Below, piece after piece: positions 23,904 through 38,281 of a stretch of 64,000 nucleotides of DNA. Position 1 is the first letter of the stretch. Each line of letters opens with the position of its first letter. The stretch covers positions 248,001 to 312,000 of the forward strand of contig CACVBU010000341.1 of the NCBI GenBank assembly GCA_902728285.1. The letters run 5' to 3'. A program made the translations under genes and the position numbers. The notes below the pieces were generated by a model. That model ran no database searches and had not been told where the DNA came from. It saw nothing but the letters and a program-made list of their open reading frames with translations. Source of the stretch: Clytia hemisphaerica. Taxonomy: Eukaryota > Cnidaria > Hydrozoa > Leptothecata > Clytiidae.

Positions 23904-24134
23904 GAAACAACGGCTCAACAGAATGCGTAACCATCCCACGAAGTTTGGACGGACGCCTTCAAGTCTCACATCGGAAGGGACTGCCACACGTCATCTACTG
24001 CCGCCTGTGGAGGTGGGCGGACCTTCAAAGTCATCATGAGTTACGCGCCATCGATAGTTGTACGTACGCCTTCAACCTGAAGAGAGATTACGTTTGCGTC
24101 AACCCGTACCATTATTTACGCGTCGAAACTCCCG
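23904..24134 (+). CDS. SMAD2/3: Smad2/3 exon: MH1 DNA-binding part
   Basis: Preceded by a TTTTTTCCGTTTCAG acceptor and followed by GTAAGA. 231 bases, phase 1 at both ends. Encodes the CVTIP strand, hairpin and zinc site, ending at RVETP. The apparent start inside it is a Leu codon, not a real initiation site. Confidence 0.95.
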
Positions 24135-27100
24135 GTAAGAAGTTGTTGAGTTGTTGTAGTTACGTCGTTGCTTTACCAATTTTGTGCCTGTTATAAGCAA
24201 TGATATCAAATACGACTGCGTACTGATATTACATTTCTGCTTTGTATTTGTAACATATTGAACATCTGACCAAAATCTGAACTTATACAGTGAAGTTTTA
24301 ATACATTGTTAACTGAAGGGGCCAGAAAACTAAAATTAAAATCATAGTGGTTCGAGTTGTGAACACTTGGCTGTATCACAGTTGTCTGTACGTTGATAAC
24401 TCGAGTATTTATATCGTATTTTTAATCCTTTTCCCAGTGATGCCACCTATCCTGGTGCCACGACAACCGCGAGCGGGTGCGGATTCCACCGCCACCAAGG
24501 CTGAAGTGAAAGAAGAAACGAAATCAACGGAAACTTTTCACACGCCAGATAACAAAACTATCGAAGATGAAAGCTGTAAGTTTTCTCTCCTATATCTTTC
24601 TTGTTTGTTCGGATTAGTTAGAAATTAAAGGCTCCTCCCGAATGTGTGGTAAATATTGTGACGAGTTTATCATAATTCAAGATTATTATTCCGGCATGGT
24701 TTGTTGTCATGGTTTCTCCTGAACTTGCCAATAGCTCCTTCTTCGGATTGAATGGAGAACTTATACGCTTGCTGTGTATAAATCAATGGAAGTCTTTGTT
24801 GTCTTTTTAGTATTGTCACCAGTCAGCCAGACGCTTTCAATACCATCGCTACCTTCCAACCCACAAAGTCCAGTTGCATCGCCTTCCAGTAAGCATCAAT
24901 GCTCCATTTCCTTATTATATCAACCTAACAATCTTAAATTCGTCGTTCAAGACATGGCTAATCTTATGCTTTTCCTTCAAACCCTTCAGGTAGAACCCTC
25001 TGAAATGAGAAAAACATTGAATATCGATTTTCTTCGAATTTTGCTTGAAAAGCGCTCTGATCGTGAATTGTTTTCTGGCACACACTTAGTAGCAATTAAC
25101 TTAATAGAATTTACACATTATTTTGCTTTTGTAGTGAATACCAATCAGAACAATTTTCAAGCGCCACAAAGTGTTGCACAACAAAGTCCGTCCGACGATC
25201 AACAATCTTTCCCACAACAACAACAACAACAACAGTTTCAACAACCGATGCAATGGTCCTCCAATAACACCACCGAGCATTCTCCCGCACAGCAGAACAA
25301 CACGACACAACCACAAGACGCTCTGCAGCGACAACTTTCCTCTCAATCACAATCGCAAGCCCAATCACCTCTTAGTGATCTCAGTGACTGTAAGATAGAT
25401 ATCCTTTCTTCTTCTTGAAGAAATTTTTTCAAACAATACAACAGATTTTGTGAAATCAAGTGCGTATTACTTATGGGTAATGAATCAACGGATCCTGCAC
25501 TAATGTACTTCCCAGTTTTTCTCAAAGGTAACGAATCAGTTCTCTCAAAGTTAGCGGGTTGGTTGGAGATTGGACACTAGCTGTGTCTCGGTTCGTGGCA
25601 ATTCCATTGATTCGAAGAATTCAGGTACCGGATGGTGAACATTGAGCACGTCGCTCCCCTCGTCTACTACGAACTAGTGTAATAGCAACGAACCGATATC
25701 GCAGTTGGGAGAGCAATCGTCCGGCAAGCGAGAGGTCGTGGGTTCAATCCCCACTCGATTCGTTACCTTTGAGAAAACTGGGAAGTACATTAGTGCAGGA
25801 TCCGTTGATTCATAACAGATTTTCATTGGCAAGTTTTCTGATGGTACAACTCTATTATATATGTATAATACATCGGAGCCTCCATAAATCGAACACGCAC
25901 GGGGAACACAGGTTTGCTCGAGTTAAAGAAATTTCGAGTTATGGGATAATGTTTATAAAGCATTGTTAACTAAACGGAACATGCAACTTGTTCGAGTTAA
26001 GGAGACATTCGAATTATAGATGTTCGAATCAAGGAGACTTCACTGTGCAGCAGACGTAATAACAGACCTGTAAATAACCTCGTATTTTGTAGAATTTTAT
26101 AATTCTCAGTTCTACTAAATCTACTTTTTCTTTTTCACCTAACGATCTTTCATTTCTTTCAACAAAAACAGGTCTTTCAACACCAGGATCGTTGTTCTCA
26201 CCGGCATCCATATCAGGTAACATTCATTCACCCAAAAAATACTTTCAATGGAATTGTCAATCATCACTGTTGTTTTGGTTTGGCTCCTATCTAGCATTTA
26301 CCTCTAGTGATCGGTAATTTTTCAATCAATCAATCGATAGATTTTCATCGGTGCTGGTCATCATCTTAAAATACTTTTACCTGTTGGTGAAGTTGACTGT
26401 GTGAGCAAATAGCAGAGCGATTTTTTTTAATGAATGTTTCTTTACCATGACAGGTGCAAGTTGTATGACGGATATCGAACCAATGAACTTCAATAGTATG
26501 TCAACATCTTACTTTTACTTTTACATCTACATCTGTTTTTTTCGTTTTTGCCACCCTTGCAGTCTACCATGCCATTCTTGTGAAGAGATTTCAGCTTAGT
26601 TATTGGCCGTTTGTAAAATTCTTTTGTTATTGACCAAAGACGGTATGAAGATTTTAAATGAAAATCAAATAAATTAAGCATCAATTAGAGAAATGACATT
26701 AAAGCCAGATTGAATAACGCAAATTAAAGAACTCATTTTTCATTTCTTTGCTTTACCTTGCTGATGCTTCTTCAGAACATTAAAGTAGACAATCTTTACC
26801 TTTTTCTTTGCAGATATTTTGACGCCGCCAAACCAAGAAATCGTACCTGACGGTAAGTTTACGATAAATTCCTTAACCTCACTGCTTACAGTAAACCAGT
26901 AAAGACTACGCTGACTGAATCTCTGATGACAACAATACTCTAATGGTTAAAGGTTCATCCATACGCGTACATTTTTAATACCGCGTAATCTATCCTACAC
27001 GTTTAAATTGTCCAGTTAAAACATGTGTCAAAAAGTCTTGAATTTCACATTTTAAAAATTTGACTTAAATTGATCTTTCTGATACCAGCTGACTTGGCGA

Positions 27101-36800: not shown

Positions 36801-38281
36801 AGTTTTCAAAAAAATTTTCAAAGTCACGAGGCGTTCTGAGTATTTAGCTACCAAGGTCAATGACCACTATACCACAACCGCAAGTTTTCCTTCGATGTAA
36901 ATCAAGCTTTACACATAATTAATTTGGAAAAAAAAACAGATATCTATATCCCTGCTAGTGAGCTGGTTTTTTTCTGATCCAGTAGATCAGTGGAAAAAGA
37001 ATGTCCTCAATAAAACAACGTCTCTAAGGACATTCCGTACCCTAAGTTGGTCTAATATCAACATCCCTCTTCTAATTCCAACACCCTTTTTTAGAGATAG
37101 GAATAATATGAAGGTTGGAATCATGATCTCTAGGGTGTTGGTATTAGAAGAGGGATGTCGACATCACTGATAGAGAAAAGATGTTTTCCCCTCTGATTGC
37201 TAAGCAAGAAAATGAATTTCAATCAGCAATTCGGACCTTCGTATTATTCCCATCTCCAAAGAACGGTGTCGAAATTAGAAGAGGGATGTCGACATTAGAC
37301 CAACTTATACGGTATATATAGGGACGTCCTTAATTATAGGGTATTGTGCCATACTGTTTTTGGAGTCAATACGTCATGTTTTCGCCACTAATTTTGAAGT
37401 CAAAATGGTATCAAGAGGTCTATTCTCATCTCTGTAGAGGGTGAGGGATGGAATTATAGTTGAGGGTTGTTGACATCAAACCAACTCAGGGTAAACATTA
37501 AAGAATCTATTGCATTATATAAGCACATGAGAAGTCGCTAGCAAGCCACATCTCAATGAAATCTGAAAATTGGAGTAATATAATGTTGATATTTTGTTGC
37601 ATACAGCAATCAGTTGTTTTCATTCGATTGATTTGATTCGGTTAGATTTGTTCAATCCTCGAGTTCTGTTTGATTTAGATTGTTAGCCAGTCTGGAAAGA
37701 AGGGAAATGTTTCGCCGGAGCTGCTCCAACTTAACTGGAAAAAGTTAAAGGCAGCAGATCTCAAATCTCAAATCTACGCCGGAGATATCCGGCGCACAAG
37801 CCGCAATTTCCAGACTGGATTGTTAGTCAAATTCTGGTTGATGTTTTATCACCATAATGACCAAATTTCAGAATTAAATCTTACCTGACTCAATAACAAC
37901 ACTTGAGTGGAAGGGATTGATACAGACTTTGGTTTCATCACAAGAGGAATGGTTATAGCAACAAGATAAGCAGCGTAAATATTCATCTTTCAAGTTTGGG
38001 AAGCGAAAAACCTTCGCTAGTAATGTCCTTGGTACAAAACTTGTTGTTCGACAAGTTATATGTCTAAAAGTGCTTGTGTTGACAAGAATACATTCAGAAT
38101 CAATACCACCATTTGCTTGTAAAGTCTTTAGTAGTATATCTAGCTGATCCTCTGTCAAAGTTTTGAAAATACTGTGAACTTTTCGTCTCAATTCTTTCAC
38201 CTCATGGTTCTGTTCCTTGTCTTTAGGAAGCTTTGAGAACCTTAAAATTTTCTTAATCATACAGCACTTCTTGTTGTACAT
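33298..38281 (-). CDS. SMAD6/7: Inhibitory Smad (Smad6/7 class)
   Basis: Antagonist of TGF-beta/BMP signalling that occupies type I receptors and brings in ubiquitin ligases. Exons, - strand: from the first in-frame ATG at 38281 to 37885, then 35585-35379, then 33890-33298. Exon 1 holds a diverged MH1 (LRRKVHSIFKTLTEDQL, KVFRFPNL, CINPFH) in the I-Smad form lacking the R-Smad DNA-binding hairpin. Exon 2 opens with the PY motif ESPLPPYSEL, the WW-domain docking site for Smurf-type ligases, followed by Thr, Asp and Ser runs. Exon 3 is the full MH2 (ITYWEEKSRIG, LTREADGIWLYNRS, SFKKGWGKNYTR, CPCWVEI) and stops without SSxS, as I-Smads do. From the ATG it is 398 residues. The start is unsure: I-Smad-like residues (KKLNLINKLWKNS) lie in frame upstream of that ATG, so a further 5' exon may exist. 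Confidence 0.93.
35379..35585 (-). CDS. SMAD6/7: Smad6/7 exon 2: PY-motif linker
   Basis: 207 bases, phase 1-1, from a TTGATTTTAG acceptor to a GTAAAT donor. PY motif PLPPYS at the start, then five Thr, four Asp, TP sites in PRTPTHP, and a Ser/Thr run at the end. Upstream Met and Leu codons in the same frame are intronic. Confidence 0.9.
36094..36387. mobile_element. MITE with GGGGGTACCTA repeats in Smad6/7 intron 1
   Basis: Ends CATGGCGTGAACC and the inverse of CATGGCATGGACC. The interior has five or so GGGGGTACCTA-type or GGGGG-rich units. No coding frame. Confidence 0.5.
37027..37330. mobile_element. Inverted-repeat MITE in Smad6/7 intron 1
   Basis: Arms share AAGTTGGTCTAAT and CATCCCTCTTCTAATT in opposite orientation at 37027-37090 and 37262-37330. 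An internal inverted copy of the second motif lies near 37130. Non-coding. Confidence 0.55.
37687..37818. mobile_element. Tiny MITE with 8-bp target duplication
   Basis: 132 bases with ends CCAGTCTGGAAA and TTTCCAGACTGG, flanked by exact ATTGTTAG at 37679-37686 and 37819-37826. The 8-bp duplication suggests an hAT-type element. It lies in Smad6/7 intron 1 about 70 bases from the exon 1 donor. The ends match those of the larger element at 46444-46864. Confidence 0.85.
37885..38281 (-). CDS. SMAD6/7: Smad6/7 exon 1: MH1
   Basis: The open frame extends back to a TGA at about 38406, but there is no in-frame ATG before 38281; the frame's first Leu codon at 38386 is not a credible start. A possible acceptor (TTTTGACTCTCAG) ends just before 38326. 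The donor is G|GTAAGATT, phase 1, placed seven residues after NPFH. Confidence 0.85.

What the first reader, a model, noticed from the sequence alone, without database searches (positions are those of the whole stretch)
23904..38281. Smad2/3 and inhibitory Smad6/7 genes sit tail to tail 3.8 kb apart
Both genes are clear from domain sequence. In humans SMAD3 is near SMAD6 (15q) and SMAD2 near SMAD7 (18q). Finding the unduplicated pair adjacent in what looks like a non-vertebrate genome suggests that an R-Smad/I-Smad neighbour pair predates vertebrate genome duplications and has held together. Orientation here is convergent, whereas the human pairs lie in the same orientation, so one inversion would be needed.
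Basis: partly seen in the sequence, partly recalled or inferred. Interest (0 to 1): 0.85.

Follow-up and report, generated by a model that had tools for sequence, protein, structure and literature searches.

The report
Linked Smad2/3 and Smad6/7 in hydrozoan
In what looks like a jellyfish relative (a hydrozoan), the gene for a growth-signal carrier (Smad2/3) lies right beside the gene for its own brake (Smad6/7), and the brake gene carries switch sequences like those of the human SMAD7 gene, which hints that this pairing and its feedback switch are very old.

Summary
The + gene is Smad2/3, the - gene an inhibitory Smad6/7; their stop codons face each other 3,812 bp apart on gap-free sequence. 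Correction: 23904 starts coding exon 2; exon 1 lies outside the window, across a 25,350-bp intron. The 417-Mb genome has a mitochondrial contig whose few tRNAs, code and gene order suggest a hydrozoan cnidarian (reference order recalled). Vertebrate SMAD3-SMAD6 linkage is in print. Against it, Mnemiopsis gene numbers point to different scaffolds, and no vertebrate neighbour was recognised on the part of the contig examined. New result: upstream of the I-Smad ATG (203-230 bp) a palindromic Smad-binding element is followed by CACGTGAC, two elements of the SMAD7 promoter; it is the only GTCTAGAC-N(0-25)-CACGTGAC found in the genome. A match to the fly Dad BMP element (consensus recalled) lies about 280 bp further up. 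Best reading: an old R-Smad/I-Smad neighbour pair whose I-Smad is under direct Smad feedback. Expression, TSS and binding are untested.

The parts
23904..24134 (+). Smad2/3 coding exon 2 (most of MH1)
   Evidence: Pfam MH1 E 4.4e-33; splice sites; exon 1 is outside the window at C242:246382-246553 and joins in phase
24438..24575 (+). Smad2/3 linker exon starting VMPPILVPR
   Evidence: GT-AG and phase; resembles the SMAD2/3 VLPPVLVPR linker start (recalled)
25135..25389 (+). Smad2/3 Q/S-rich linker exon (predicted from splice sites and frame only)
   Evidence: the longer frame around it has no Pfam match (protein 5)
28866..29485 (+). Smad2/3 last exon: whole MH2, L3 loop [19 protein letters not shown], tail SSNS, stop
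   Evidence: Pfam E 1.3e-61; best PDB match SMAD2/3
29486..33297 (.). 3,812-bp tail-to-tail intergenic stretch
   Evidence: longest stop-to-stop frame inside it 96 aa
33298..33890 (-). Smad6/7 last exon: whole MH2, ends CPCWVEIYLNI, no SSxS
   Evidence: Pfam E 3.3e-36; best PDB match SMAD7
35379..35585 (-). Smad6/7 linker exon with PY motif ESPLPPYSEL
   Evidence: compares with human SMAD7 ESPPPPYSRY (recalled)
37885..38281 (-). Smad6/7 first coding exon (divergent MH1), ATG at 38281
   Evidence: Pfam MH1 E 3.5e-17
38484..38491 (-). CACGTGAC (E-box plus AC), 203-210 bp upstream of the ATG
38504..38511 (-). palindromic Smad-binding element GTCTAGAC, 223-230 bp upstream of the ATG; 12 bp from CACGTGAC
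38494..38545 (.). cluster of six GTCT/AGAC half-sites in 52 bp
   Evidence: with a GTCT microsatellite at 50413 the densest 70-bp cluster in 284 kb of C242
38794..38808 (-). GGCGCCACTCGGGCG, fits fly Dad BMP-activating element GGCGCCA(N4)GNCV (consensus recalled), 513-527 bp upstream of the ATG
27517..27585 (.). second Smad-site cluster (5 half-sites, GTCTAGAC at 27533) between the linker and MH2 exons of Smad2/3

Best explanation
A hydrozoan-type cnidarian carries single-copy Smad2/3 and Smad6/7 as convergent neighbours, 3.8 kb between stops. The linkage was most likely inherited from the cnidarian-bilaterian ancestor and survives in vertebrates as SMAD3-SMAD6 and SMAD2-SMAD7 (the latter recalled); one inversion separates the orientations. 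Proposed working: receptor-phosphorylated Smad2/3 (SSNS tail) with Smad4 binds the palindromic Smad element next to an E-box in the I-Smad promoter, and Smad1/5-Smad4 may use the GGCGCCA element. The I-Smad protein then blocks type I receptors through its MH2 and recruits a Smurf-type ligase through its PY motif, closing a negative feedback loop. Shown: genes, domains, motifs, order, rarity of the composite site. Inferred: binding, induction, feedback, age of the linkage.
For: Gene identities and intact models. L3 loops: RRQT in the + gene; HRQD in the separate Smad1/5 gene on C643. Hydrozoan-type mitochondrial contig. Vertebrate SMAD3-SMAD6 linkage (PMC5045880 passages). SBE and E-box motifs of the Smad7 promoter conserved across vertebrates (PMC4321984 passages and legend); two probes from that promoter read ...GTCTAGACGG and CACGTGACG... 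(PMC5918965 passage). GTCTAGAC-N(0-25)-CACGTGAC has one match in 417,433,876 bases, in this promoter, in the sense of the gene. Six half-sites in 52 bp; of 6,000 simulated 500-bp stretches none had six in 60 bp or the SBE/E-box composite. GGCGCCA(N4)GNCV: 536 in the genome, one here.
Against: No other non-vertebrate genome could be searched, so inheritance against independent meeting rests on chance arguments and vertebrate data. Mnemiopsis genes carry different scaffold numbers. No vertebrate neighbour recognised on C242, though only 15 of 83 long frames outside the window were tested and 71 of 355 kb was not read. The reversed control of the strict composite also has one match. The 6-base E-box version has 15 matches against 40 for its reversed control, so the composite is not enriched as such; the case rests on location. 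Gap limit and AC extension were chosen after seeing the site. PMC5918965 labels the CACGTGAC probe AP-1, not E-box, and there deleting the Smad site did not change YAP/TAZ-knockdown induction. Spacing is 12 bp here, about 3 in human (recalled). TSS, expression and binding unknown.
Confidence: 0.66

Rival explanations
1. The two genes came together by chance rearrangement in this cnidarian lineage; vertebrate linkage is independent.
For: Orientation differs from the human pairs (recalled); no shared neighbours found on the part of C242 tested; Mnemiopsis scaffold numbers differ; fly and worm genes unlinked (recalled).
Against: A named pair is adjacent by chance about once in 10,000 genomes (assumes about 20,000 genes), while the same pair is known to be linked in vertebrates.
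Confidence: 0.25
2. Assembly error joined two unlinked loci.
For: Contig-level assembly; no reads could be checked.
Against: No N in the 64-kb window; the pair lies about 69 kb from the nearer contig end; both genes intact and single-copy in the MH2 search.
Confidence: 0.03
3. The adjacency is the birthplace: I-Smad arose by tandem duplication beside a Smad2/3-type gene before cnidarians and bilaterians split, and the pair never fully separated.
For: After SMAD7, the I-Smad MH2 scores best with SMAD3 (57 bits), then SMAD4 (54) and SMAD1 (48); both genes have a phase-1 intron just after MH1.
Against: Score differences are small; the I-Smad MH1 scores best with SMAD4 (39 bits); the same intron in Smad1/5 and Smad4 was not compared.
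Confidence: 0.12
4. The I-Smad upstream motifs are chance matches without function.
For: GTCTAGAC occurs 9 times in 284 kb; GGCGCCA(N4)GNCV 536 times in the genome, with recurring repeat-like sequences among the listed places; composite not enriched over reversed control; no expression data.
Against: Only genome-wide match of the strict composite; half-site cluster; element content as in SMAD7, order and sense as recalled for SMAD7.
Confidence: 0.2

Closest known systems
Vertebrate SMAD3-SMAD6 and SMAD2-SMAD7 linked pairs
   Same: An R-Smad of the 2/3 type and an I-Smad on one chromosome stretch (SMAD3-SMAD6; SMAD2-SMAD7 recalled)
   Different: Here unduplicated, tail to tail, 3.8 kb apart; human pairs same orientation and hundreds of kb apart (recalled); no shared neighbours found in the part tested here
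Vertebrate SMAD7 proximal promoter (SBE plus E-box)
   Same: GTCTAGAC and CACGTGAC in the proximal upstream region of the I-Smad; same order and sense (human order recalled)
   Different: Spacing 12 bp against about 3 (recalled); extra half-sites; no TGACTCA/TGAGTCA in the 1 kb scanned
Drosophila Dad BMP-activating element
   Same: One match to GGCGCCA(N4)GNCV (recalled consensus) upstream of the I-Smad
   Different: No binding test; 536 matches genome-wide

Membership tests
Smad2/3 (R-Smad) | MH1 and MH2 domains | tested here: met
Smad2/3 (R-Smad) | MH2 closer to SMAD2/3 than SMAD1/5; L3 loop R..T type | tested here: met
   359 against 326 bits; [10 protein letters not shown]; meaning of the L3 residues recalled
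Smad2/3 (R-Smad) | C-terminal SSxS | tested here: met
   ends SSNS then stop
Smad6/7 (I-Smad) | MH2 closest to SMAD6/7 | tested here: met
   SMAD7 120.7 bits, next 57.3
Smad6/7 (I-Smad) | No SSxS; PY motif in linker; divergent MH1 | tested here: met
   ends YLNI; ESPLPPYSEL; MH1 E 3.5e-17
Smad6/7 (I-Smad) | Inhibits receptor-Smad signalling | not testable with these tools
   needs an assay
Vertebrate R-Smad/I-Smad linked block | The two genes linked | tested here: met
Vertebrate R-Smad/I-Smad linked block | Same orientation (human orientation recalled) | tested here: not met
   convergent here
Vertebrate R-Smad/I-Smad linked block | Shared neighbours (skor1, pias1 and others) | tested here: inconclusive
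   Ski/Sno on C495 and C470; PIAS model rang nowhere, controls included; 15 of 83 long frames tested, 71 kb of C242 unread
SMAD7-type promoter | Palindromic SBE followed by CACGTGAC upstream of the I-Smad | tested here: met
   single genome match
SMAD7-type promoter | Induction by Smad2/3-Smad4 | not testable with these tools
   needs ChIP or reporter

The most novel reading that the evidence does not exclude
The Smad2/3-Smad6/7 neighbour pair and the SBE-plus-E-box switch of SMAD7 both descend from the cnidarian-bilaterian ancestor: a feedback loop whose two protein genes and whose cis element have stayed together for over 600 million years (age recalled), with a BMP-type element beside it, so that one ancestral I-Smad promoter held the input sites later divided between vertebrate SMAD7 and fly Dad.
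Probability: 0.35. Interest if true: 0.85.

Novelty: new variant of a known kind. Interest (0 to 1): 0.62.

Why it matters
Proximal promoter elements recognisable between cnidarians and humans would be rare (recalled general view; not tested here). If the I-Smad feedback switch is shared, it gives a fixed point for how TGF-beta/BMP feedback began, and the linkage gives a simple map test in genomes already public. It also bears on whether I-Smads arose beside Smad2/3.

Tried and rejected
Paper searches for non-vertebrate Smad linkage: the listed papers (25 of 63; 20 of 63; 0; 8 of 8; 20 of 363; 1 of 1; 15 of 322) showed no report of it in title or abstract start; the rest of the hits were not seen. 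One search (smad7, Smad binding element, cnidaria) found 0 papers. Passages of PMC13121700, PMC6057997, PMC5979292, PMC11226491 say nothing on this linkage. Gene numbers as a proxy for position: only Mnemiopsis gave an answer; Huminiecki 2009 showed none in the passages found. Full human SMAD7 promoter letters: one search found 7 papers; the relevant one held only the probe (PMC5918965), another synthetic SBE oligos. Fly AE consensus: terms not found in PMC10847725 or PMC4933369, PMC6344883 not held, so it stays recalled. Nematostella pSMAD1/5 ChIP paper (PMC10849676): the term smad6 does not occur in the main text. Smad2/3 exon 1 in window 8501-23904: best hit E 0.042, unconvincing; found in L027. 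The half-site cluster at 50413 is a GTCT microsatellite. GTCTAGAC at 1992 and 9244 are LTR copies of one element. Exact species not determined.
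Full report
What is there. The mechanical ORF lists show Smad domains on both strands. Pfam gives MH1 (E 4.4e-33) and MH2 (E 1.3e-61) on the + strand and MH2 (E 3.3e-36) and MH1 (E 3.5e-17) on the - strand. Against solved structures the + MH2 fits SMAD2/3 best (359 bits; SMAD1 326). The + MH1 exon scores best with 6h3r (a Smad whose type the entry name does not give, 151 bits), then SMAD3 (146) and SMAD5 (130). The - MH2 fits SMAD7 best (120.7 bits; next SMAD3 57.3); the - MH1 is too diverged to type and scores best with SMAD4 (39 bits).

Gene models. Smad2/3 (+): 23904-24134, 24438-24575, 25135-25389, 28866-29485, joins GT-AG and phase 1; the third is predicted from splice sites and frame alone and further exons before 28866 cannot be excluded. 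Exon 1 is outside the window: a 59-residue human SMAD3 start typed from recall hits L027:8400-8552 with E 1e-13 against a 12-kb subject. The exon reads MSSTMFLSFNAPIVKRLL... and joins exon 2 in phase. From exon 1 to the stop the gene spans C242:246382-277485. Intron 1 (25,350 bp) holds an LTR element that I read as BEL-like, with 664-bp LTRs 99.85% identical, a DDE_3 ORF that I read as mariner-like and a reverse transcriptase ORF. Smad6/7 (-): 38281-37885, 35585-35379 (PY motif ESPLPPYSEL), 33890-33298, one open frame from ATG to stop. The stops face each other over 3,812 bp. The window has no N.

Organism. The assembly has 417,433,876 bases in 951 contigs; the window is C242:248001-312000. 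COX1 lies on a 14,551-bp contig and has in-frame TGA. On one strand that contig encodes cox2, trnW, atp8, atp6, cox3, trnM, nad2, nad5, nad6, nad3, nad4L, nad1, nad4, cob, cox1 (gene names given by me from the translations). ARAGORN found two tRNAs (Met, Trp) in two of three modes; the mammalian mode added a third, low-scoring Phe. Few tRNAs and this order with cox1 after cob is what I recall for hydroidolinan hydrozoans; no call supplied the reference order, so class level is likely and the species unknown.

Smad complement. MH2 search of the own genome: 6 matches on 4 contigs: C643 is Smad1/5 (408 bits to SMAD1), C527 is Smad4 (270 bits) in two pieces, C242 the pair, C735 a weak MH2 whose best solved match is the fly chain 4r9p (E 1.8e-5). 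MH1 search: 7 matches, including two on C378, a contig without an MH2 match. So Smad2/3 and Smad6/7 each appear once.

Is the linkage old? Vertebrates: PMC5045880 (passages) reports SMAD3, SMAD6, pias1, skor1, kif23, tle3 and a morf4-like gene conserved between the two teleost copies, and conserved neighbours out to elephant shark, with long upstream stretches missing in gar, elephant shark and anole. Human positions and orientations are recalled. Ctenophore: PMC3169577 (passages) lists Smad6 as ML19701 and Smad2 as ML017743, different scaffold numbers. Sponges: Amphimedon has 0 Smad6/7 in that paper's table, and Halisarca none (PMC8235796 passages). On C242 I held 284 of 355 kb (514 N). Of 83 frames of 125 aa or more outside the window I gave 15 to Pfam (10, 5), and of 72 frames of 90 aa or more in the window 10; short exons would be missed. 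Recognised outside the window: a Mab-21-like gene, a MACPF gene, a lectin-like ORF below its cut-off, a 2OG oxygenase-like exon, a UCH-type peptidase, a DAN-domain gene, a proteasome exon and a GDSL-type ORF. None is a vertebrate SMAD neighbour that I know. Ski/Sno matches lie on C495 and C470. The PIAS model matched nowhere and rang in no control, so it tells nothing. Against about 1e-4 for chance adjacency (assuming 20,000 genes) the shared linkage favours inheritance, but this is inference.

The I-Smad upstream region. GTCTAGAC occurs 4 times in the window against 0.41 expected: two are LTR copies, one lies between Smad2/3 exons (27533), one 223-230 bp upstream of the I-Smad ATG. In 284 kb there are 9 in all, and only the I-Smad one has CACGTG within 40 bp. 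It sits among six GTCT/AGAC half-sites in 52 bp; the only other 70-bp stretch with six is a GTCT microsatellite. In the sense of the gene it reads GTCTAGAC-12 bp-CACGTGAC. PMC5918965 (passage) gives two probes of the Smad7 promoter, one ending GTCTAGACGG and one starting CACGTGACG; the paper calls the second an AP-1 probe, and that the two lie side by side in this order is recalled. PMC4321984 (passages) says SBE/E-box motifs are found in the Smad7 promoter, highly conserved across vertebrates. GTCTAGAC-N(0-25)-CACGTGAC has one match in the genome, this one; the reversed control also has one. With CACGTG alone there are 15 (11 forward, 4 reverse; five look like copies of one repeat) and 40 for the reversed control. 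By location alone the chance of a match within a given 1 kb is about 2e-6 (strict) or 4e-5 (loose), before allowing for choices I made after seeing the site. In 6,000 simulated 500-bp stretches 16 had the palindrome, none the composite, none six half-sites in 60 bp.

A second element, GGCGCCACTCGGGCG at 38808-38794 (-), fits the fly Dad BMP-activating consensus GGCGCCA(N4)GNCV (recalled; PMC10847725, passages, says such an element was defined from dad and has conserved counterparts, without giving letters). Window 1 against 0.02 expected; genome 536 against 83 for the reversed control, with recurring sequences among the listed places that suggest repeats. A match within a given 1 kb by chance is about 1e-3.

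Mechanism. Smad2/3 with an SSNS tail can be a type I receptor substrate; with Smad4 it would bind the SBE cluster, with a bHLH factor at the E-box; the I-Smad has the MH2 and PY motif needed to block receptors and recruit a Smurf-type ligase. All steps beyond motif content are inferred from known Smad biology (recalled). Whether the shared 3.8-kb stretch holds a control element was not tested.

Verdict. In print: none of the papers listed shows, in title or abstract start, a cnidarian Smad2/3-Smad6/7 pair or an SBE/E-box at a cnidarian I-Smad, and searches found no paper; the library holds open-licence papers only and most lists were capped.

Noticed in passing
G000:C378:240462-243413: Two MH1 domains (E 2.3e-30 and 5.2e-37) about 2.4 kb apart with no MH2 match on the contig: possible tandem MH1-only Smad-like genes.
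   Followed up: no
L005 (G000:C735:500565-500936): A weak MH2 domain, no MH1 match on the contig; best solved match is the fly chain 4r9p (RE28239p, E 1.8e-5; I recall this as Expansion, an MH2-type protein).
   Followed up: partly
window 1497-9412: LTR element (read as BEL-like) with a 2107-aa open frame and 664-bp LTRs 99.85% identical: a recent insertion inside Smad2/3 intron 1.
   Followed up: partly
L022:7574-8092 (C242:157574-158092, -): DAN-domain protein (E 5.8e-23), a possible BMP antagonist about 88 kb from Smad2/3 exon 1.
   Followed up: no
L011 (C242:45.7-47.9 kb): MACPF-domain ORF (35.2 bits, cut-off 27.5) next to a D-mannose-binding-lectin-like ORF below its cut-off (26.7 against 32.4).
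   Followed up: no
L013-L016 (C242:60-100 kb): Several long ORFs that look related by eye, near 2OG-Fe(II) oxygenase-like exons (one confirmed by Pfam): perhaps a local gene expansion.
   Followed up: no
window 25690-25762 (+): tRNA match (37 bits, cut-off 29) between the linker and MH2 exons of Smad2/3; tRNA gene or SINE head not decided.
   Followed up: no
G000, PF14324 search: No PIAS PINIT domain found, but no control rang either, so absence is not shown.
   Followed up: no
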